DNA of 64,000 bases from Pyropia haitanensis (Eukaryota > Rhodophyta > Bangiophyceae > Bangiales > Bangiaceae). The stretch covers positions 2,929,090-2,993,089 of the forward strand of contig SDUX01000010.1 in NCBI GenBank assembly GCA_008729055.1, in the 5' to 3' direction. Every line of letters starts with the position of its first letter. Position 1 is the first letter of the stretch. The notes beneath the pieces are model-generated. The model made no database searches and was not told the DNA's origin. It worked only from the letters and a program-made list of their open reading frames with translations. This document shows positions 36,009-56,300 of this stretch, piece after piece. The translations under genes and the position numbers were made by a program.

Positions 36009-36108
36009 GTTGGCTTCGGCCATATGATACACTGGAAAACAAACAGAGAAGATTAGCATGAGTCCTCGCGCAGAGATGACACATACAAATCCGAAGAGTA
36101 CCACTTTT
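36009..36108 (+). ncRNA. U6: U6 spliceosomal snRNA
   Basis: U6 forms the catalytic core of the spliceosome. The match is by conserved blocks in order. A 5' hairpin TTGGC-TTCG-GCCA lies at about 36010-36022. The ACAGAGA box that pairs with the 5' splice site is at 36043-36049. The catalytic AGC within GATTAGCATG is at 36051-36060. The internal stem-loop region CCTCGCGCAGAGATGACAC follows (36064-36082), then a 3' tail running into a T tract. The length (about 100 nt) is normal. The exact 5' end is inferred from the hairpin. Its presence fits the GT-AG introns in this window. Confidence 0.94.
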
Positions 36109-36120
36109 TTTTTCTTTTTT
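36105..36120 (+). terminator. RNA polymerase III T-run terminator of U6
   Basis: Ten T residues, one C, then six T residues immediately follow the U6 body, as expected for a Pol III gene. Confidence 0.85.
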
Positions 36121-43276: not shown

Positions 43277-43726
43277 CGCAGGGAGGACGCCTGGGCCACA
43301 CCGCCCGTGGCGGGCGGGCGGCGGGCGGCCTGAGCATTTCGTGGTGGGGGGCCCGTTTTTCGGGCGGCCAACCCGTGCCTCGCCCGCTGCAGGCGACCCC
43401 CCGGCCACGCGTCGTGGGGCGTGCACGTGCGTGACCGCAGCACGCGCGACATAAACGCGGCTTGGTCCCGCCGCCCGCTCCGCTGCCATCCTTCGCCGTC
43501 GTGCACCGTAGCGTCTACCCTCTCCCCCTTCCTACGACCCCGCGTCGCGTTGCGGGCCTCCGCCTGCCCGCGAACATCCCTTGCGCGTTCCCTCTTCGCG
43601 TGCCCTTGGTCTTCCTTTCTCCCCTCCAAGCGCTACCTCCGTACGTGGGTCCCCCATCCTGCTCCGCCCCTCCCCTTTCCCTTTTTTTTGTTTTGGGTTT
43701 GTTGCACGTCCCCCTCGGTCACGGGG

Positions 43727-46018
43727 ATGTTGCATCAGATGCGGGACCGTGACGCCCTGCGGGACGCTGCCATGGCGGGGGAGGCGGTGACCCCGCCCGA
43801 ACCACGGACGGCTTTTTTGGCGTCGTCGCCCGTCCCAGTGAAGTTGGTCTCGGACGTGCGGTTGCTGCATCAGCGGCACCGGCCGCGGCCGAGCGAGCAC
43901 CTGTTGGATAGTGACGATGGGGTGCTGGGCGCGTCTCCGATGAGCGTGTCCCCGTCTGGTTCGCCCGCGTCGTCGTCGTGGACGATGCGTGCGCGCTTTT
44001 GGCCTCCATCCCACTCGGGGGGGCGCCACCGGTCGGGGTCGAGCGTTGCCACGCTGCCGCCGGTGGAGGAGCGGTCGGCCGTGCGCGTTGCGGAGTCGTC
44101 CGCCGACCGCTTTTCCGAGCTGCTCCCCATGGGTGCATCCATGCCCGACGTGTTGGGCGAGGATCTTGTGTGCGGCGTGAAGGCGCTGCCGCTGCTGCCG
44201 GTGGCGCCCGAGCTACCCCAGATGGACGCGGACAGCGCGTTGCAGTTGGCGGGGGCGGTGCGGCAGTTGGACTCGGCTATGTACGCCTACTTGGGTCCGA
44301 TTGCGCGCAACAAGGTTGTGCGAGCGCTGGAGATGGCCCAGACCCTGCCGGTACAGACCCAAACGACACTGCTGGTGGAGAATGTGTCTGTTGCGGCCAT
44401 TGTTGCCGACCTGCAGTGGGACGTCGACACGGTCATTGCAGCGGTTCTGCGCGGTCTGGTGTCCTCTCCGTCGCTCACGTTTGCGGGCGTGTGTTCGGAT
44501 GATGCCCTCACCTCATACGCTGCGTCGGCGGGTCTGTCGGAGGCGGATGTGGAGGCGAATGTTGGCGGCGATGTGCTGCTCATCCTGCGTCAAAACCACA
44601 TTGTTGACAATGTGGTGGAGGTGACGAAGGACTCGGTGATGAGCGACGCCAACTTTGCGACGCTGCGGCAACTGATTTTGGCGACCGCCACGGATGTGCG
44701 GGCAGTTGCCCTGCAGCTGGCCACGGCGGTGGTTAGTGCGCGGCAAATGGCGTCTTCTGGCGTGCCGTGCGAGGGCGAGCATGACGTGGGCCATGGGGCG
44801 GCCACCCGCACCTTGAGCCTGTACGCCCCGCTGGCGAACCAGCTGGGCGTGTGGGCCATCCAGACGGAGCTAGAGGAGCTGGGCTTTGAGGCTCTCTATC
44901 CCGAGGAGTGCGCTCGCGTACGGGAACTGGTGGGCGCTCGGATGGGCGAGTGCGCAGTGACGCTGGAGGAGACGAAGCGGGAACTGGAGCGGACGCTGTC
45001 GCGCTCCCCCGCTGTGCGCCGGTCGGCACGCTCCGTGCGGATTCGGGGCCGTGTTAAGGGCATCTTTTCCTTGGCCCGCAAGATGGCCCGATCTGGCAAG
45101 TCGCTGGATGATATTCACGACCTGCTGGCGCTGCGTGTCATTGTGCAGCCTCGTGCGGCCGGTGATGCGGACGAGGTGGCGGCGTGCTATGACGTGATGA
45201 CGGCGGTCAACGATGCGTGGTCGGTGGTCGAGTCGCGGTCCAAAGACTACCTGGCCAACCCCAAACCCAATGGGTATCGCTCCCTGCACACAACGGTGCG
45301 GTCGTCGTCAGGCACCCCACTTGAGGTGCAGGTGCGCACGGAGAAGATGCATGTGCTGGCCGAGTACGGCCAGGCGGCGCACTGGATCTACAAGGAGACG
45401 GGCTCGTCGGAGCCGACGTCCTCTTCCTGTGGTGACTCGTCGGACCGACACCCCCTATTTACCACTGCGGAGCAGCGGGTTCTCGGCATCCCCCGCAGCT
45501 CTTCCCTTCAAAGGCCCGCCGCCTCTGCGCCTGTTCCCATTCCTGGGGCTGCGCACGCGTCGCCCGCCCAAGACCACTTCTACGCTGCGGATCTAGCGGG
45601 CGCGGCTGCGTGGAGCGGGACGGACACGCTGCACGCGGAGCTGCGCGAGATGCAAGCTCGGCCCTCTCGGCGGGGTCAGAGCAGCAACGCAGCGGTGTCT
45701 GAGGCAGCGCTGCTCACGCTCGCATCGGTTGGCCGCGCGATCCGCGATAGCTGGGTTATCGTGTGTGCGGCGGGACAGCTGCATCGTTTGGCGGTTGGAT
45801 CCACTCTACTGGACCTGGCGGTGCGCACTGGTGTCGTGGAGGCGGCCACCTTTGCATCCAAAGGCGTTGTGGCACTCGTCAATGGACGCGTGGTGCCATC
45901 GTCCTACCGTCTGCGGATGAATGACAACGTGAGCTTTGTCAGCGGCGACGACCGGGGAACGGCTTGCTCCGCAACCAACCCATCGGGGCGGCGGACGTCG
46001 GTTCGCGTGGCTGCATGA
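43727..46018 (+). CDS. RSH: RelA/SpoT homologue (RSH), synthetase-type with degenerate HD domain
   Basis: RSH proteins make and break (p)ppGpp; in algae and plants they act mainly in plastids. The synthetase domain (residues about 430-560) is intact: RGRVKGIFSLARKMARSGKS, DDIHDLLALRVIV, SKDYLANPKPNGYRSLHTTV and EVQVRTEKMHVLAEYGQAAH. A TGS-like domain follows at about 670-750 (WVIVCAAGQLHRLAVGSTLL, VALVNGRVVPSSYRLRMND). The region equivalent to the HD hydrolase (about 200-330) keeps its helices but lacks the metal-binding His and His-Asp; where active enzymes have a LLHD..ED motif this has VLRGLVSSPS. So it should be synthetase-only. The first in-frame ATG is 43727, giving 763 residues; the N-terminus is Ser/Pro/Arg-rich and could be a transit peptide. 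Confidence 0.92.
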   Translation: MLHQMRDRDALRDAAMAGEAVTPPEPRTAFLASSPVPVKLVSDVRLLHQRHRPRPSEHLLDSDDGVLGASPMSVSPSGSPASSSWTMRARFWPPSHSGGRHRSGSSVATLPPVEERSAVRVAESSADRFSELLPMGASMPDVLGEDLVCGVKALPLLPVAPELPQMDADSALQLAGAVRQLDSAMYAYLGPIARNKVVRALEMAQTLPVQTQTTLLVENVSVAAIVADLQWDVDTVIAAVLRGLVSSPSLTFAGVCSDDALTSYAASAGLSEADVEANVGGDVLLILRQNHIVDNVVEVTKDSVMSDANFATLRQLILATATDVRAVALQLATAVVSARQMASSGVPCEGEHDVGHGAATRTLSLYAPLANQLGVWAIQTELEELGFEALYPEECARVRELVGARMGECAVTLEETKRELERTLSRSPAVRRSARSVRIRGRVKGIFSLARKMARSGKSLDDIHDLLALRVIVQPRAAGDADEVAACYDVMTAVNDAWSVVESRSKDYLANPKPNGYRSLHTTVRSSSGTPLEVQVRTEKMHVLAEYGQAAHWIYKETGSSEPTSSSCGDSSDRHPLFTTAEQRVLGIPRSSSLQRPAASAPVPIPGAAHASPAQDHFYAADLAGAAAWSGTDTLHAELREMQARPSRRGQSSNAAVSEAALLTLASVGRAIRDSWVIVCAAGQLHRLAVGSTLLDLAVRTGVVEAATFASKGVVALVNGRVVPSSYRLRMNDNVSFVSGDDRGTACSATNPSGRRTSVRVAA

Positions 46019-47744: not shown

Positions 47745-48369
47745 GGCGGCGAGTTGGCAAGCCCACAACACAGGCACAGAGGGCAGTGGCGGAGGGTAGA
47801 GGGAGGATAGTATGTAGAAGGGTGGGCGGGTGGATGGAGTAGGCAGAGGTTGTGCAGGACGATGCCCAGATGTCAGGAGAACGGGCAGGAGAGGGCGGCC
47901 TCGTCCAGGTCAGAGACGGCTCACGCGGAGTTCTCGAGGATTGGCCACAGCTGTGCGTAGCTGGGCGGCGGTTCGAGCGACGCCGGCGCGGGGGCTGGGA
48001 GATGGCCACGTGGCGGGCCGCGCTGGGGTCCACAATCACAATGTCGACGGGATTAGCTTCGAATGTATAGTAGCACCCGTGCGTTCATTCGTGTAAATAT
48101 ATTTAGAATTCAATAACAACATCTACTGCTATCTTCCAGTACGAACCGCTCGAAAGATTCGCGCGCTGCACCTCGCAGAGTCGCACCCGACCATCCTCGT
48201 TGACCTTGGCAGAGAAGGTCGAGAAGTATCCCCGGGAGCACCCACCTTGACGCACTGGCGCAAGCCCCACCCCTGCCACGGCCCCTGCGCCTGCCGTGGT
48301 CGCCTTTGGCGGCGCGGCTGTTCGTATCCCCCTGCCTACCCGCCCCCAGTTGTCTTTGCCCCCTCTACC
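47745..48369. promoter_or_regulatory. Bidirectional promoter region
   Basis: It separates the divergent starts at 47744 (-) and 48370 (+). The AT-rich segment 48060-48140 includes GTAAATATATTTAG and, 30 bases on, a TATCTTCCAG. These could be the two ends of a 46-nt leader intron (48093-48138), but this is not proven. Confidence 0.4.
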
Positions 48370-49305
48370 ATGGCACTCGAGGCGTTTTGCGTTCCGCCGC
48401 TGGTGTCGCTGAGGCCCTCGAACGGCGCGGCTGTCGGCCGCCGCGGTGGTTCGGCGTTTTGTCCGCCCCGGCCGGCGGCAGCAGCCATCGTGCGTCACGC
48501 GGCAATCCAAGGTTCACGGCTGCGTGTAAGCGCTTCCGCCGGTGGGCCAGCCCCCGAAGCGCCGGCGGCCAGCAATGGCGACTCCGTTGCTGCGGCCGCT
48601 GAAGGCGACGAGGAGGAAGACGTGGGCGTCATGATGTCGGCGCCTACCGAGGCAGACGCGCAGCTTCTGTCTGCGGCTATGAATGGTGAGCTCCCCGCCA
48701 TCTCTGCCGCCCTTGAGGCGGGTGCGAGCCCATCGGCGACCGACGGCAATGGCCGCACCGCCCTCCACATGGTCGCTGCCAATGGTCTGCGGCAGGCCAT
48801 TGGGGACCTCCTGGAACGGGGCGCGGATATTGACGCTACCGACACGGAAGGCCTGACCCCGCTGCACATGGCCACAGGCTACCAGCGCCCCGACACGGTG
48901 CGGGCGTTGTTGGCCGTCGGTGCCGACCCCGACATCCGGTCCAGGGTGGGCGACTCGGCGGTGGAGCTGGCAGAGAAGGTGGTTGGGGTGACACCTGAAA
49001 AGGTGTTTTGGCGGCGGAATGCCAAGTACGACACGGCGTTGGAGGTGTTGGGCATCCTCGAGGATCTGTACGAGTATTACGACGATGACGAAGCGGAGGC
49101 CGACGGGGAGGGTGCTGCAACCGAAGGGGCTGAGGCGATGGCTGCCGAGGCAAGTTCCGACGGGACAGATGTCAAGTTTACGGTGCGCAAGCGCGTGCGC
49201 GCCGAGGAGGCGGGTGGGGAGGCAGTGCCGGTCGAGGCGCCGCCGACGTCGTCGTCGGCTGACGTGCAGACAACCGTGCGGGTGCGCAAGCCGCAAAAGG
49301 ATTAG
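48370..49305 (+). CDS. Ankyrin-repeat protein, probably plastid
   Basis: 311 residues with no frame breaks. The N-terminus (MALEAFCVPPLVSLRPSNG) is transit-like, with Ala, Arg and Ser and few acids up to about residue 60. Ankyrin repeats lie at about 97-200: AQLLSAAMNGELPAISAALE, DGNGRTALHMVAANGL, DTEGLTPLHMATGYQRPDTV and VRALLAVGADPDIRSRVGDS. The C-terminal part is acidic (EYYDDDEAEADGEG), then has two related basic strands, VKFTVRKRVRAEE and VQTTVRVRKPQKD. It does not show the chromodomains of cpSRP43. A protein-binding role in the plastid is an inference. Confidence 0.82.
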   Translation: MALEAFCVPPLVSLRPSNGAAVGRRGGSAFCPPRPAAAAIVRHAAIQGSRLRVSASAGGPAPEAPAASNGDSVAAAAEGDEEEDVGVMMSAPTEADAQLLSAAMNGELPAISAALEAGASPSATDGNGRTALHMVAANGLRQAIGDLLERGADIDATDTEGLTPLHMATGYQRPDTVRALLAVGADPDIRSRVGDSAVELAEKVVGVTPEKVFWRRNAKYDTALEVLGILEDLYEYYDDDEAEADGEGAATEGAEAMAAEASSDGTDVKFTVRKRVRAEEAGGEAVPVEAPPTSSSADVQTTVRVRKPQKD

Positions 49306-50061: not shown

Positions 50062-51057
50062 TCAGATGGCCCCGGCGCGGATGAGTACCTTGGACACCTT
50101 CTCCGCCTCCCCACACTTGCGCGCCTCGCGGAGGGGCGTAGTCTCGCCGTCTCCCGCCCGACCAGAGGCGCTGCCCTTGGCATTCACGTCCGCCCCCACC
50201 TCAACAAGCGCCGTCAACGCATCCACGTTCCCAGTGGCGGCAGCCCACAAGAGGGGCGTCCAGCCCACCACGTTCTTGGCGTCCACGTCAGCACCAAGGC
50301 TCGCCAGCACCCGGATCGACTCGGCGTGGTTGTCAATCGCCGCCAGGTGCATGGCCGTGTGCTTGTACCCCTTGCTTACCGCATTCACGTCCAATCCGCG
50401 GCTTACCAAAAGGTCAATGAGGCCAGGGTAGCCCTTGCGTGCGGCTAGGTGGAGCATCGTCTCGCCATACGGGGACACAACTCCAGGATTGGCGCCAGCG
50501 ACCAAGAGGAGCTTGGCCACCCCCGCGTGGCCAGTCACTCGCGCGCGGATCTCGACCTGCTTGGGCGCCTTCTTGGCAGCCTTACCCGTCAGGCCAGGGA
50601 AGCCCGCAGGCGGCGCCGGCCGCGGCTTAGTCGTCGGCAAGTTGTCAAACGCATACACAAGCGCCGTGTGGCCCGTGTTGTTGGTCGCATTCACGTTCAC
50701 GCCCGCGGCGAGCAAAGCCTTGGCAATCGGCACGCTGCCTTCCGACGCCGCCCACATCAGCGCCGTCATGCGGCTGTCGCCTTGCGTCGACGCGTAGTTG
50801 GCCGACACGCCCGCGTCGAGCGCCGCCGTCACCGCCGCTTCATCGCAGAGCATGGCGGCGCGGACCATGGCCTCCTCGGGCGTCAGGCGTGGGGGGGGCT
50901 CCCCGCCTGCCGCCGCCATGACCAGTGGCCGGCCCAGGCGGGCGGGCGACGCCACTGCCGCCGCAGTCGGGCGGCGGGAGTGGATGAACCGGGGGGCCAC
51001 CCATGCAGATGCAGACGACGGCACGCAGGCAGCCGAAACCGTAAAGGCGGGCGCCAT
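50062..51057 (-). CDS. Ankyrin-repeat protein, probably plastid
   Basis: 331 residues, uninterrupted. The N-terminus MAPAFTVSAACVPSSASAWV plus RRPTAAAVASPARLGR is a good plastid-transit candidate (Ala/Ser/Arg-rich, no acids). About six ankyrin repeats follow: MTALMWAASEGSVPIAKALL, GHTALVYAF, GHAGVAKLLLVAGANPG, GETMLHLAARKGYPGLIDLL, HTAMHLAAIDNHAESIRVLA and GWTPLLWAAATGNVDALTAL. A linker with KAAKKAPKQVEIRARV interrupts the array. The C-terminus REARKCGEAEKVSKVLIRAG is a degenerate capping repeat. It is convergent with the other ankyrin gene and divergent from the Fanzor gene, whose start is 833 bp away. Confidence 0.83.
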   Translation of the reverse strand: MAPAFTVSAACVPSSASAWVAPRFIHSRRPTAAAVASPARLGRPLVMAAAGGEPPPRLTPEEAMVRAAMLCDEAAVTAALDAGVSANYASTQGDSRMTALMWAASEGSVPIAKALLAAGVNVNATNNTGHTALVYAFDNLPTTKPRPAPPAGFPGLTGKAAKKAPKQVEIRARVTGHAGVAKLLLVAGANPGVVSPYGETMLHLAARKGYPGLIDLLVSRGLDVNAVSKGYKHTAMHLAAIDNHAESIRVLASLGADVDAKNVVGWTPLLWAAATGNVDALTALVEVGADVNAKGSASGRAGDGETTPLREARKCGEAEKVSKVLIRAGAI

Positions 51058-51890
51058 GGCAGCAGGGAAATCGGTGGACGTCAGCAACGATGATGGCGGC
51101 AGCGGCCGTACAGACACACACGGACGAGGGACTACGCAAAGGTGAGGGAGGGGGGGTACAGAAGCCGAGCAGAGGTCAAGCAGTGCAACAGCCACGGAGC
51201 TGTGGTGGTGGGATGGTGGGGATGCGGGTGTCGCAGGCCACTCGGCAGCGACAGCGGTGGCGAGTGTACAAAAGCAGGTGGCGTTCACCCCCCCCCGCCA
51301 CGGTGAGTGGGACGAGACCTGCGTGTTACACCCACCCGGTGCGCCTCCACACACGCGCCGTGGACTCCCCCACTCACGCCGCTGCAGACACCACAACTGT
51401 ACGGTCGTGTGCACGGTGCAGCCAGCGCACGAGGCGGGCGTCGCTGGAATGGCACAATGGCCGGCAGGGGAGCGTGTAGATGGCGGCGGCCTCGCACGTG
51501 ACGGAGAGGATGGAACGCGACGTGGCCCCTCGGCTGTGGGGCGACCGGGACGGGGGTGCCGTGGGCAGGCGGGCGAGGGGGGGGTGTGGGAGGGGGGGGC
51601 AGCTGCAGACGGGAGTGGAAGATGGGCGCGCAACAGCAGCCACGGACATCGTAGGAGGGGGAGGGGGCGCGCGGTAAAGGTACCGCCAGCGTATCGCCAC
51701 GTGGCTAGATCGATGTGGTCTGGCTGCGCAAGCGCGCTGCTGGGCGCCCTTGGGAGCCGCCTGCAGGCCACCCAACTTGGATGCAACGCGTGACTGGACT
51801 TACAACTTAACACGTGTGCTAAACCAGCACCAGACCGTGCCAAGGAGCACGCGTCCCCCCCACCCGCTCCCGACGTCCGCGGCGCTTGCA
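51058..51890. promoter_or_regulatory. Region between ankyrin gene and Fanzor gene
   Basis: Divergent starts on both sides, so it may hold two promoters or the left boundary of a Fanzor-bearing element. Small inverted repeats are present (GCGGTA/TACCGC at about 51671-51686, and GTGC/GCAC close to the Fanzor start), but no terminal inverted repeat matching the right side was found. In-frame codons upstream of 51891 back to 51750 lack coding character. Confidence 0.4.
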
Positions 51891-54077
51891 ATGGAGCCGG
51901 ACGAGGAGGAGCCGGGCGCCGGCCCTCAAGACGAAGGACCGCACGGACACGGCGCAGACGCCGACGACGCCCTCCCGCCCGGAGATGGCGCCGCGTCGGG
52001 CGACGACGCCGACCCGCGGGAGGTGGCCGAGCTGGAGGCCGCCGTGCACCTCAAGCAGGGGCGCCTCCGCGGGCTGCTGCGCCGCATGGGCGAGGCGCGG
52101 GCGCGGCGCCCGCAGCTGCCCGACGGCGCCGCGCTGGACGCGGCCCTCGCCAGAATGACGGCGGCGGCGGCCGCCGCAGCCGGGGCGCCCCACGAAGCCT
52201 CGCCCACCACCGACGGCGCGGTGGCGGCGTCGGGCGCCGCCCTGGAGGCGGCCACCACCCCGGCGGTGGCGGGCGCGACCGCGTGGGTGGACGCGCACCA
52301 CCCGTTGGACGACGACGGCCTTTTGGCGCAGCGGGCGCGGCGGGCGGCGTCCCTGATTGGGAGCACCTCCCGCGGCATGGCGCGGCGCGTGGCAGAGGTG
52401 GAGGACCGCCGCGGGGCGGCGCCCGGCGGCCGCCCCTGCGCCCGCTGCCGCCAGCGGTCTCACAAGACGGGGGCGGCGACGTGCCCGGCCACGGCGGTGG
52501 GCGGCGACAAGAACCCGCACGCGTACGACCGCGGGGAGGACCCCGCCGCGTCCGACCCGTACGCCTGCCGGGCGACGGGCACGTCGTCGGTGATGGTGCC
52601 CGTCGCGGCGGTCCTGCGCACCCTGCCCGCGAGCCCCGACGGAACGGCGCACGCCGTCGTGCGCGGCGGCTTCCTCGCCACCGCCGAGCACCACACGCAG
52701 CTGCACTTCACGCTGACGCTGGTGTGGCTCAACACCGTGCACACCCTCTTTGGCGCCGTCAAGGCGGACGGGTGGGCGGCGGCGCTGCCCGGCCCCGCCG
52801 GCTGGGGCGAGTACTGGAACTGGGTGGCGTACGCGGTCTGCTGCCGTGGCGCACACGGCGGCAGCCTGCCCGCCGGCGTGAAGTGCGGCAGCTGCGGGCG
52901 GGCGCGGGACAACACGTTGTGCGGGCCTGCTGCGCGTCGGCTGTCGGTGTCCTACCCGGCCTTGATGGACGCCACGCGTAACGCCATGGACGCGCTCGCG
53001 TCTTCCTTTGACGCCGCGTGCCACGACCACCTGCCGCACGGCAACAGCCACGCGCGGTGGCGAGGGGTGGTGACCACCATCGTCACCCACACGGCGAGGA
53101 CGGTGGCGGTCGCCACCCGGCGGCTGGCGTGGCGGGTGGCCACAATGGTGGTGGATGCGGCCGACGCCCCCGCCTCTGGCGAAGAGCAACGCGGACGGCG
53201 CCGCGCCGCGGTCTACGCCGCCGCAAGGAGCTGCCTGGAGCGGGGGAGCGACGCGCCCCACGCGGCGCACGCGGCCAAGCTGGACGCCCTACCCCCCGAC
53301 GTGCGTGCGGCGGCGCTCAGGGAGATTGCCGACGCGCGGGTGCGGGCGCAGCCGGCGCCCGTGCAGGGTACCCCACCGCTGTTCCCCACAGGCGGGGCGC
53401 ACGTGGTCGCGCGCCGGTGGGCAGAGTACATCCCGTACCTGCTGCACGTGCAGGCGGAGGGGGTGGTGGACAAGCCCTTCTCGCTGGTGCCTGGCAAGGC
53501 CGCCACCCTGCACGGGTATGGCACGGTGACCAAGGCACGCCTGGGCCCGCTCATCCGGCGCGCCTGGCCCGCACACCGCGAGCTGTACGAGGACGTCCGT
53601 CGGCGGGGGGCGGCGGCCATTGCGGGACTCCTGGGGCTGGAAACTGCGCGGTGCACCTCCGGCGCCGACCTCCGCTCCAACGGGGAGGGGGTGGTCTTCA
53701 CGCTGTCGCGGCCGGCGACGGCCGCCGAGGCCGAGGCCGCGGACGTGGCGGCCGTGACGCGCAAGGCCAACGGCAGCCGGGTGCAGTCGCGGGTGCAGGG
53801 GAGCCCCACCACGCAGCTGGAGAAGCAGGGCTTCCCCATCGCCGCCGTCAAGACCCTCACCGTTGTGTCGGCAGACCCCGGCAAGGCCACCGTCCTGACG
53901 GCCGTCTCGTCTGGGCCGACGGCAGCGGCATGGGGCGACCGCCCGTGGGTGCGCCGCCGCCGGCTGGCGCGGTCGCGGCTGGTGGCGGCGGACGCGCTCA
54001 CCCGCGCGGCGCTGGCGCTAGACGCCGTCGTCTGGCGCGCCGCCGCCCTGGCGCCGGCCGAAGCGGCGGCGGCAGGC

Positions 54078-54120
<43 letters not shown>

Positions 54121-55862
54121 GCGGGGCCCCGCCGGGAGCCCTCACCCCCTCTCCGGCGTGGAGAAAGCGCAAGGCCGCCCCCGGCGGCGCAGAGCAACGG
54201 CAGCCGCCGTGCGGCAACGCGGCCACGACTGGACCGCCTCGCGGCGGCGCCGCCGGCGGGACAGCCGCGCCGGCGCCATCGGTGCGCCCGCCGTCGGAGA
54301 GAACCGCGCGGGGGCCGGCAGCCTCCCTCCGGCGCGGCGCCGTGCGGCGCCTGCGGGCCGTGGCGCAGCGCCTGGTGGTGGCCACCGGCAATGGCCGGTG
54401 GCGGGTGCCGCGTCACGCGGCCGTCGACGTGGCGCTCGGCTGCCTGCGCCGGGCCGCCGCCGGCTGGGTCCGGCCGCGAGTGGCAGACGGGCGGCCCGAC
54501 GGCGCCGCGTTCGCGGCGTGCAAGACGGCGGCGGCGGCGCAGGACGTGGCCGCCGCCGGCGCGTTTGCGTCCGCCTTGGACGGCCTGACGGCGCGCGTGG
54601 CAGACGCGGTCGGGGCGACGCGGGGGTGGCGGGCGCCCCCCCCCGCGGGCGCCGTGTACACCCTGACCAGGGGCCGCTACACCGAAGCTGCAGGCAACGG
54701 CATGACGGCGCGGGCGGCGGCGGCGGAGCACCGGCGGGAGGCGGCGCAGCGGCTGGCCGCGCTCCAGCTGCCGCCGGCGACGACCCCCGAGGTGGTGGCC
54801 GCGCACGACACGGTGCGGACGGGCGACGCGGCGGCGGTGCTGGCGGCCAGCCGCCAGTGGATGGAGTCACGCCGCCAGCCGCAGTACAGGGCGGTGTGGG
54901 GCGCCGCGGCGACGGCCGGCCAGCGCAAGGCGCGGGTGCATCAAGTCATCCGACGGCGGCGGCTGGGCGAGGCCGTGGCGCGGGAGCTCACGGGTGGCCG
55001 CCTCCGCCGCGTCGTCAACCGCTCGGCGGTGGTGGTGGTGGTCGGGCAGGCGGCCACCCGAGGGGGCGCCACGTGGCTCCGCCGCCACCTCCGCCGGCTG
55101 TGCTGGATGGTGGACGCAGACGAGCACAACTCGAGTCAGGCGTGCGCCGGCTGCCGCCAGCAGCTGGCGGTCGTGTACGCGTCGGCAGCGGCGCCGCCGC
55201 CCGTACCCCGCGGCACCCTGATCTGTGGGCGGCGGCGGGGCCGCCGTGGCCGGCAGGGGCGCCCGCGTGCGCCGCCGACGGCCGGCTGGGAGCGCACGCA
55301 GCCGGTGCGCTCCGCCGCGCGACGGGCGGCCTGTCGAGCAGAGGCTGCCAAGATGGCGGCAGAGCGGGCGGTCAAGCACCCACCCCCGGCGAGGGTCGTG
55401 TTTCGTGCCCCCGCCGCCGCGGGGGTGTGGGGCGTCAAGCGCTGCGTGGAGCGGGCGTGTTCGCGGCAGCTGGTCAACCGCGACGTGAACGCGGCGGCCA
55501 ACATGGGGTGGAAGGCGCTGCGGCAGATACGGCAGCTGCCGTGCCACCCGTTTATGCGCCCGCAACGCGTACGACGGCCGAGGCTGGGAGGCGGTGACGA
55601 CGGCGAGGCGGCGGGCGCCGCCGCCGCAGACCGAGCTGGCGACGGCGCCTGCGGCCGTCCCCCAGGCGCCGCAGTGGTGGCGGTCGCCACGGGCGACGCG
55701 GGCGGGGAGGCGGCTGTCGGACCGGATGGCGACGGCGGGGCGCGGACGGCGGTGGTGGCGGACACGCACACGGTGGCAACCACGGAGCTCGCCAGAGCGG
55801 CAGAGACGGGAGACGGTGCGCCAGCGGTGGCGGGCGGCGGCCGGGCAACTTCCGTGGCGTGA
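51891..55862 (+). CDS. Fanzor (eukaryotic TnpB-like RNA-guided endonuclease)
   Basis: Single uninterrupted frame of 1,323 residues from ATG 51891 (gcaATGg). The C-terminal third has the TnpB/Fanzor RuvC nuclease. RuvC-I is TLTVVSADPGKATVLTAV (Asp662). The canonical RuvC-II site has no Glu (VVVVVGQAATRGG), but Glu1078 in WMVDADEHNSSQACAGC sits in the rearranged Fanzor position before the zinc knuckle. RuvC-III is LVNRDVNAAANMGWK (Asp1198). The zinc knuckle is CxxC (1085, 1088) plus Cx4C (1185, 1190), split by about 96 residues instead of the usual short loop. A further CxxC (183, 186) lies near the N-terminus and a poly-Ala tract at about 720-745. Length and divergence suggest the Fanzor1 group. 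Fanzor proteins are known to cut DNA guided by an RNA from the 3' flank. Confidence 0.88.
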
Positions 55863-56300
55863 GTCGGTTCCACACCGCGGTACTCACGGCACGATAGCCA
55901 CCGGCCGCCGAGTGCCACGAGCTCGGTTCACCCCTCTCTCCGACGAGCCGCGTGCGGGTTTTCGTCGGATGTTCAGATTGCGTGTGAGGGGGGTTACTCT
56001 GCTATCGCAGAGTTTCTCCCCGGGGGCCGGTCCCCCCACGTGCATTCTCCCGGTCACGAGATCTTCTGCTCGCCCTTCGCGTACCGATCTCTCTAATCGG
56101 CAGGATGATCCTGCATGCTCCTACCACCCAGCTGGCTGCACCGCGTTGCAAGCGTGTGTCCAACCTAGGCCAAGGGCCTTTTCGCATCTGCGCACCTCGT
56201 CTGACACGGTATGCGTGACGAAATGAGCGTGGGGAGGACCCCTCGCTCGTGGAGAGCACCCCACGCTCGTGAACCTCAACCTTCCCTTCTCACCCTCACA
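55863..56300 (+). ncRNA. Candidate Fanzor guide-RNA scaffold (hairpin-rich 3' flank)
   Basis: In TnpB and Fanzor loci the guide RNA is read from the 3' end of the gene and its flank. Here the flank has a series of perfect inverted repeats: ACTCTGC-TATC-GCAGAGT (55996-56013), CCGAT/ATCGG (56084-56100), GCAGGAT-G-ATCCTGC (56100-56114) and GAGCGTGGGG/CCCCACGCTC with a 24-nt loop (56225-56268). No protein frame is convincing. Promoter, 3' end and guide boundary cannot be fixed by eye; this is inference from position and structure. Confidence 0.3.

What the first reader, a model, noticed from the sequence alone, without database searches (positions are those of the whole stretch)
51891..55862. A Fanzor RNA-guided endonuclease gene in a red-alga-like nuclear genome
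All three RuvC acidic positions can be placed (Asp662, Glu1078, Asp1198), with the Glu in the alternative position that distinguishes Fanzor from most TnpB proteins. The frame is intact over 1,323 residues while many neighbours are frame-broken, which suggests selection or recent arrival. It is much longer than typical TnpB (about 400) and at the long end for Fanzor.
Basis: partly seen in the sequence, partly recalled or inferred. Interest (0 to 1): 0.95.

Follow-up and report, generated by a model that had tools for sequence, protein, structure and literature searches.

The report
Giant Fanzor nuclease on mobile DNA
A red seaweed genome carries about ten nearly identical, recently spread copies of a mobile element whose gene looks like an unusually large Fanzor (the eukaryotic cousin of CRISPR nucleases), and the element ends in a conserved folded RNA that probably serves as its guide-RNA scaffold.

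Summary
In detail: an intact 1,323-aa frame at 51891-55862 (+) with Asp662 (DPG), Glu1078 (six residues before CxxC) and Asp1198 (NRDVNAAAN). Deciding evidence: relatives in Pyropia yezoensis and other data; three separate segments align in order to a profile of a viral Fanzor1 plus the three solved Fanzor1s (2/150, 0/150, 0/150 shuffles as good), the N-terminal third does not; the Fanzor1 TDG motif occurs in sister subfamilies. The gene is mobile: 10 of at least 35 matches in its own genome are 99.5-99.9% identical in DNA and share one exact 3' end. New here: the 187 nt between stop codon and that end carry a conserved RNA structure, a stem-loop plus a terminal three-stem fold closing at the element's last bases, kept across subfamilies through compensatory and G-U changes, as expected of a Fanzor1 omega-RNA scaffold with its guide in the flank. 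The window copy is 5'-truncated. The protein is over 1.5 times the roughly 800 aa published as the upper Fanzor1 size. Transposase unknown, activity untested. Verdict: new variant of a known kind.

The parts
51825..56049 (+). window copy of the mobile element: 4,225 bp, 5'-truncated relative to copies of about 9.7-10.9 kb, right end complete
   Evidence: homology to nine other copies ends at 56049/56050 in each; on the left it starts at 51825 while six other copies run on
51891..55862 (+). Fanzor1-type gene, 1,323 aa
52437..52484 (+). zinc-knuckle-like C-x2-C-x4-H-x6-C (residues 183-198) in the N-terminal extension
   Evidence: kept in P0002 and P0003; Pfam zf-CCHC_6 only at E 4.2 in P0003; zinc binding is inference
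53676..53684 (+). SNG (residues 596-598) at the place of the Fanzor1 TDG motif of the WED domain
   Evidence: TDG in B30 and D93, TNG in P0002-P0004; motif described in PMC10711439
53874..53882 (+). RuvC-I DPG with catalytic Asp662
54066..54320 (+). Ala/Gly/Pro-rich low-complexity insertion between RuvC-I and RuvC-II (approximate limits)
55122..55154 (+). alternative Glu1078 and first zinc pair Cys1085/Cys1088
55443..55460 (+). second zinc pair C-x4-C (Cys1185/Cys1190)
   Evidence: second Cys missing in D93 and L049
55482..55484 (+). RuvC-III catalytic Asp1198 in NRDVNAAAN
55939..55969 (+). conserved stem-loop of the right-end RNA
   Evidence: pairs in 66 of 66 cells of six distinct sequences, with compensatory changes
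55971..56049 (+). terminal three-stem domain, candidate omega-RNA scaffold; outer helix 55975-55986 with 56037-56048
56050..56064 (+). host flank that would be the guide (15 nt, by analogy with SpuFz1)
   Evidence: inference; differs in each copy; 14-15 nt guide of SpuFz1 in PMC10432273

Best explanation
The gene encodes a very large Fanzor1, an RNA-guided RuvC nuclease carried by a recently active mobile element of a (probably Bangiales) red alga. Shown by sequence: the Fanzor fingerprint, collinear similarity to solved Fanzor1s, ten near-identical copies with one exact right end, and a conserved RNA fold filling the last 79 nt of the element. Inferred: the 3' part of the transcript is the omega-RNA; its scaffold ends at the element's border and the next roughly 15 nt, from the host flank, are the guide. 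The protein-RNA complex would cut DNA that matches that flank, that is the empty target site, which favours keeping or copying the element there. Movement itself probably needs an enzyme acting in trans: I found no transposase in the element; the lack of visible TIR and TSD and the hairpin-prone ends are compatible with a Helitron2-like route but do not prove it.
For: Fingerprint and its rarity. Profile segments 1010-1105 and 1170-1225 beat 150 of 150 column shuffles and 490-705 beat 148 of 150, each landing on the homologous place of Fanzor1. PF07282 is the only Pfam family listed at E<10 for C-terminal pieces of three subfamilies, though below its cut-off. Ten copies at 99.5-99.9% DNA identity with a common right end and different flanks; 6 of 7 fully read frames intact. 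Right-end RNA: 89.8% of 98 cells paired, 10 cells changed on both sides against 4.6 expected, 0 of 500 shuffles as high; stem-loop 66 of 66 cells; the same three-stem MFE in A, B and C. It matches the published description of Fanzor1 right-end RNAs: about 75-nt scaffold after the stop codon, three stems, no pseudoknot, terminal double-stranded stem (PMC10432273 and PMC10711439, passages). dN/dS 0.32-0.54 within family B.
Against: Whole-protein Pfam 10.2 bits against 26.3; nothing in NCBIfam or PDB by sequence; full-length profile comparison has a probability of only 6%. AlphaFold2 unusable, so the triad geometry is untested. Spacing Asp662 to the [TS][TS] motif is about 418, outside the 125-275 of PMC3627910. 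The A subfamily has SNG instead of TDG. In D93 and L049 the last zinc Cys is missing. No RNA or activity data. The RNA evidence rests on six distinct sequences; L045 lacks part of the first hairpin (z -1.8 against simple shuffles), D93 has z -1.7 with an end chosen by eye, and the number of pairs changed on both sides, 5 against 3.5, is not exceptional by itself (81 of 500).
Confidence: 0.88

Rival explanations
1. The right-end structure is a DNA feature: single-strand hairpins recognised by a rolling-circle (Helitron2-type) transposase, not an omega-RNA. The protein may still be a Fanzor.
For: Hairpin-prone left and right ends, no TIR or TSD seen in two copies, variable inner parts; two Helitron_like_N matches in the genome; Helitron2 carriers of Fanzor1 are known in Chlamydomonas (PMC3627910 passages).
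Against: G-U pairs are frequent among the kept pairs (9 cells, 7), which suits RNA better than DNA; position and size match the SpuFz1 omega-RNA. The two readings can both be true.
Confidence: 0.12
2. A Fanzor-derived protein that has lost nuclease use and serves the element or the host in another way (for example RNA or DNA binding).
For: Large added N-terminal part and insertions; SNG for TDG in subfamily A; many broken copies in family B.
Against: Catalytic positions kept wherever covered, right-end RNA kept, dN/dS below 1.
Confidence: 0.06
3. An unrelated zinc-ribbon protein, or a chance resemblance.
For: Sub-threshold Pfam, no PDB sequence match, failed structure predictions.
Against: Three segments align in order to Fanzor1; 0 of 20,000 shuffles give the fingerprint; the mobile-element setting with a structured right end is that of Fanzor.
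Confidence: 0.03

Closest known systems
Fanzor1 of Spizellomyces punctatus, Parasitella parasitica and Guillardia theta (8gkh, 9cf0, 9cer)
   Same: TDG-DPG-alternative Glu-zinc-RD order, second zinc pair C-x4-C (alignments), right-end RNA after the stop codon
   Different: about 1,320-1,410 aa, an unmatched N-terminal third, a low-complexity insertion after RuvC-I, a longer Arg-rich stretch inside the zinc module; no sequence-level match without profiles
CMe-1A Fanzor1 element of the red alga Cyanidioschyzon merolae (PMC3627910, passages)
   Same: Fanzor1 in a multi-copy red-algal element without TIRs
   Different: about 150 copies each about 80% identical to the consensus, 3-kb element; here ten copies at 99.5-99.9%, full elements about 9.7-10.9 kb. 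The proteins were not compared.
CRe-1/2/3 Helitron2-borne Fanzor1 of Chlamydomonas reinhardtii (PMC3627910, passages)
   Same: non-autonomous element with hairpin-prone ends and a Fanzor1
   Different: CRe elements share ends with verified Helitrons and have TSDs of about 7-19 bp; neither was shown here
Viral Fanzor1 L057 (IMG/VR contig)
   Same: all motifs in the same order
   Different: 655 aa, AT-rich, PF07282 above its cut-off

Membership tests
Fanzor, fingerprint of PMC10711439 | RuvC-I DPG | tested here: met
   Asp662-Pro-Gly; kept in P0002-P0006 and in D93
Fanzor, fingerprint of PMC10711439 | alternative Glu six residues before the first zinc CxxC | tested here: met
   E-x6-CxxC in P0001-P0004, also in P0006, P0007 and D93
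Fanzor/TnpB motif of PMC3627910 | D-x(125,275)-[TS][TS]-x-x-C4 zinc finger-x(5,50)-RD | tested here: inconclusive
   all elements in order, but the first spacing is about 418 because of the insertion
Fanzor/TnpB, Pfam PF07282 | zinc-ribbon domain above the curated cut-off | tested here: not met
   10.2 bits whole protein, 16.3 for the C-terminal piece, cut-off 26.3; the reference Fanzor1 L057 scores 28.7. This is a detection cut-off, not a biochemical feature.
Fanzor1 | profile similarity to solved Fanzor1s along WED, RuvC and zinc parts | tested here: met
   three segments, 2/150, 0/150 and 0/150 shuffles as good; full length only 6% probability
Fanzor1 | TDG motif in WED | tested here: inconclusive
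   TDG in B30 and D93, TNG in P0002-P0004, SNG in this protein
Fanzor1 | RuvC triad in one site of a RuvC fold | tested here: inconclusive
   two AlphaFold2 jobs, mean pLDDT 36.6 and 36.4
Fanzor1 | carried by a mobile element, omega-RNA at the right end | tested here: met
   ten near-identical copies with one right end; structured right end; expression not shown
Fanzor1 | RNA-guided DNA cleavage | not testable with these tools
   needs experiment
Fanzor1 as against Fanzor2 or TnpB | place in a tree | not tested
   no Fanzor2 or TnpB references were gathered; Fanzor1 is favoured by TDG in sister subfamilies and the C-x4-C pair only
Helitron2 element | 5' and 3' hairpins with asymmetric terminal inverted repeats, RepHel in autonomous copies | tested here: inconclusive
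   hairpin-prone ends and an 8-base AACCCCCC/GGGGGGTT complement that is low complexity; no known domain in ten upstream frames, nine of them inside the element; two Helitron_like_N matches elsewhere

The most novel reading that the evidence does not exclude
A lineage of giant Fanzor1s in Bangiales has gained an N-terminal, possibly zinc-binding part that replaces a transposase partner, so that the nuclease and its right-end RNA alone drive insertion or copying of the element.
Probability: 0.07. Interest if true: 0.9.

Novelty: new variant of a known kind. Interest (0 to 1): 0.66.

Why it matters
One genome of a lineage that includes crop seaweeds holds about ten copies of a Fanzor element so alike that they must have moved recently, at least six with an intact gene, each with its own natural flank, beside an older family of at least 13 copies. 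That makes a direct test possible of whether a Fanzor spreads with its element by cutting empty sites. It also supplies a Fanzor1 much larger than those described, with an unexplored extra part, together with a covariation-supported RNA scaffold to express it with.

Tried and rejected
Template switching: three copies (L023, L025, L029) first looked 5'-truncated onto one shared sequence. That sequence encodes a polyprotein that I recognise by its protease, reverse transcriptase, integrase and chromodomain-like parts as Ty3/gypsy (recalled, no family search was run). In L023 it is flanked on both sides by Fanzor DNA, with 862-bp LTRs 99.9% alike and a 5-base duplication, so it is a nested insertion; for L025 and L029 only the 3' junction was read.

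Structure: two AlphaFold2 jobs were unusable, so no fold search was run. A viral-contig search with our alignment gave 161 pattern matches and no relative. Upstream frames of the element: ten tested (nine inside the element), best Pfam E 0.98. PDB search with the D93 C-terminus: 29 rows, none a Fanzor; the three alignments shown fall on its Gly-rich tail. The third homologue search returned only known members. In one search one row (L030 piece) did not overlap the others and says nothing. In one search the fold of D came out empty by an indexing slip; it was folded.

Full report
WHAT IS THERE. The frame 51891-55862 (+) is intact, 1,323 aa, 78% G+C with 90% at third positions, and lies in the longest stop-free stretch of the window. 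None of 20,000 residue shuffles carries the fingerprint, and of 379 stop-free stretches of at least 100 aa in the window only this one does.

HOST. The window holds a U6 snRNA and genes such as a RelA/SpoT protein, a class-3 lipase and two ankyrin proteins. It lies in a 52.9-Mb genome of 136 contigs. Relatives P0006 and P0007 are named as Pyropia yezoensis hypothetical proteins, a Bangiales red alga. That the host itself is a Bangiales species is inference; no tool names it.

PROTEIN FAMILY. The first search listed four proteins among 7,977 scored candidates, one of them (P0005) a fragment of this same gene; the second added P0006 and P0007; the third nothing new. Two subfamilies, A (this gene, P0002, P0007) and B (P0003, P0004, P0006), share DPG, the Glu-zinc motif and, where the sequence reaches it, RDVxAAAN. 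A third, D, lies at G000:C93 with VDPG, STDG, DEFNTSQACPSC and NRDCIAAVN, and one stop inside.

COMPARISON WITH FANZOR1. Standard libraries are nearly blind to it: PF07282 at 10.2 bits for the whole protein against a cut-off of 26.3, NCBIfam nothing, PDB nothing relevant, and PF07282 finds nothing in the own genome at E<=0.001 although it rings in 6 of 14 control genomes. For C-terminal pieces of A, B and D, PF07282 is the only family listed at E<10, at 0.011, 0.081 and 0.015. A pattern scan of viral contigs gave 8 stretches, of which one, L057, holds a full-length protein with all motifs; it matches the solved PpFz1, SpuFz1 and GtFz1 at 4e-35, 3e-34 and 4e-23. Against a profile of these four, our seven-sequence profile gave a score of 34.3 and a probability of only 6% over full length, the match being the RuvC-III region. 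By segment: 1010-1105 scored 33.8 (shuffles at most 22.1), 1170-1225 scored 28.4 (at most 24.5), 490-705 scored 22.3 (2 of 150 shuffles as high, one of them far higher), and 130-480 scored 16.1 (27 of 150, no similarity). The second zinc pair is C-x4-C, as in the three solved Fanzor1s, but its second Cys is missing in D93 and L049. The TDG motif that PMC10711439 calls characteristic of Fanzor1 (passage) reads TDG in B30 and D93, TNG in P0002, P0003 and P0004, SNG here. AlphaFold2 failed twice (mean pLDDT 36.6 and 36.4), so the geometry is untested.

SIZE. PMC10711439 gives up to about 800 residues for Fanzor1s (passage); the solved PpFz1 chain has 1,259 residues, but that counts a fused maltose-binding protein. 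Members here have 1,323, 1,331, 1,394 and 1,408 residues. The extra length is an N-terminal part with a zinc-knuckle-like motif, a low-complexity insertion after RuvC-I, and an Arg-rich insertion inside the zinc module.

MOBILE ELEMENT. Searching the own genome with residues 1010-1225 gave 35 matches, a lower bound: 10 at 100%, 13 that cover residues 1-213 of the query at 56-60%, and 12 partial or more diverged. The 10 share one right end; DNA identity to the window copy is 99.53-99.91% over 1,081-4,228 bp for the nine others, and the flanks after the end all differ. Of the 7 copies whose whole frame I read, 6 are intact and one has an early stop; in the other 3 a retroelement stands where the 5' part should be, shown as a nested insertion in one. 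The window copy lacks the left half: homology begins at 51825. The two copies read to the left end are about 9.7 kb and 10.9 kb; a search with that left end gave 11 matches. No TIR or TSD was seen in those two, and no known domain in the upstream frames tested. Four family-B copies give dN/dS of 0.32-0.54 in their six pairs, and 0.33-0.35 against a more distant broken copy, which is consistent with purifying selection.

RIGHT-END RNA. From the stop codon to the right end there are 187 nt in A and 180 nt in B; ten of eleven fetched B copies share that end and L033 does not. The whole region folds better than shuffles (z -3.3 and -2.9). A stem-loop at 55939-55969 pairs in 66 of 66 cells of six distinct sequences, with U-A, C-G and G-C at one pair and G-C, A-U and G-U at another; 8 of 500 shuffles reach its covariation score. 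The last 79 nt form an outer helix around two hairpins in A, B and C in the same register. The outer helix plus the second hairpin have 89.8% of 98 cells paired, 10 cells changed on both sides against 4.6 by shuffling, and a covariation score that 0 of 500 shuffles reach; sliding gives 38.8-68.5% paired. The number of pairs with a change on both sides, 5 against 3.5, is not exceptional by itself (81 of 500). The first hairpin was not scored because its alignment is uncertain, and L045 lacks part of it. Energy z scores are -5.6 (A), -3.4 (C) and -5.1 (B). D93 folds alike (z -1.7), but there I picked the 3' end by eye, so it is weak support.

READING. SpuFz1's omega-RNA is a 75-nt scaffold between stop codon and right end plus 14-15 nt of flank (PMC10432273, passages). 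Fanzor1 right-end RNAs are three-stemmed, lack the pseudoknot, and end in a double-stranded stem (PMC10711439, passages). The red-algal right end fits this description. I therefore infer that the flank after 56049 is the guide. G-U pairs (9 cells, 7) favour RNA over a DNA hairpin, without excluding a double role in transposition.

NOVELTY. Fanzor1 in a red alga has been in print since 2013 (C. merolae; PMC3627910, passages). Searches of the held library for Fanzor with Porphyra (0 papers), Pyropia with TnpB (0), the two P. yezoensis locus tags (0), Fanzor with Rhodophyta (3) and Fanzor with red algae (5, of which 4 listed) showed no Bangiales Fanzor in what I saw: passages of PMC3627910 and PMC12633428, and listings with abstract starts for the rest. 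The Fanzor listing itself has 82 papers, 40 of them shown. Large Fanzor surveys outside the library, or supplements, may list it.

Noticed in passing
L041 with L023; L025; L029: A Ty3/gypsy-like LTR element (recognised from its polyprotein, not by a family search), LTRs 862 bp and 99.9% alike in one copy, sits inside three of the ten Fanzor copies at different points; possibly a preference for them.
   Followed up: partly
G000:C9:6366806 and G000:C8:4588886: The only two Helitron_like_N matches of the genome lie about 11 and 20 kb from Fanzor fragments listed (C9:6355267, C8:4609039). Not shown to be linked.
   Followed up: no
L022, L026 and L028, about 640-1,000 bases left of the point matching window 51825: A duplicated block of about 121 bases with the palindromes GCAGTAGTACTACTGC and GAGTAGTACTACTC; variable modules of the element meet near it.
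   Followed up: no
window 55860-55886: The stop codon opens a hairpin (TGAG...CTCA) that is in the predicted folds of L045, L046 and family B, but not in the lowest-energy fold of the window copy.
   Followed up: partly
window 48247-49305 (+) and 50062-51891 (-): Two ankyrin-repeat genes; the Fanzor copy starts just upstream of the second.
   Followed up: no
window 43421-46018 (+): RelA/SpoT-type protein with HD and synthetase domains, as expected in a plastid-bearing alga.
   Followed up: no
window 36012-36110 (+): U6 spliceosomal RNA (Rfam RF00026, 61.9 bits).
   Followed up: no
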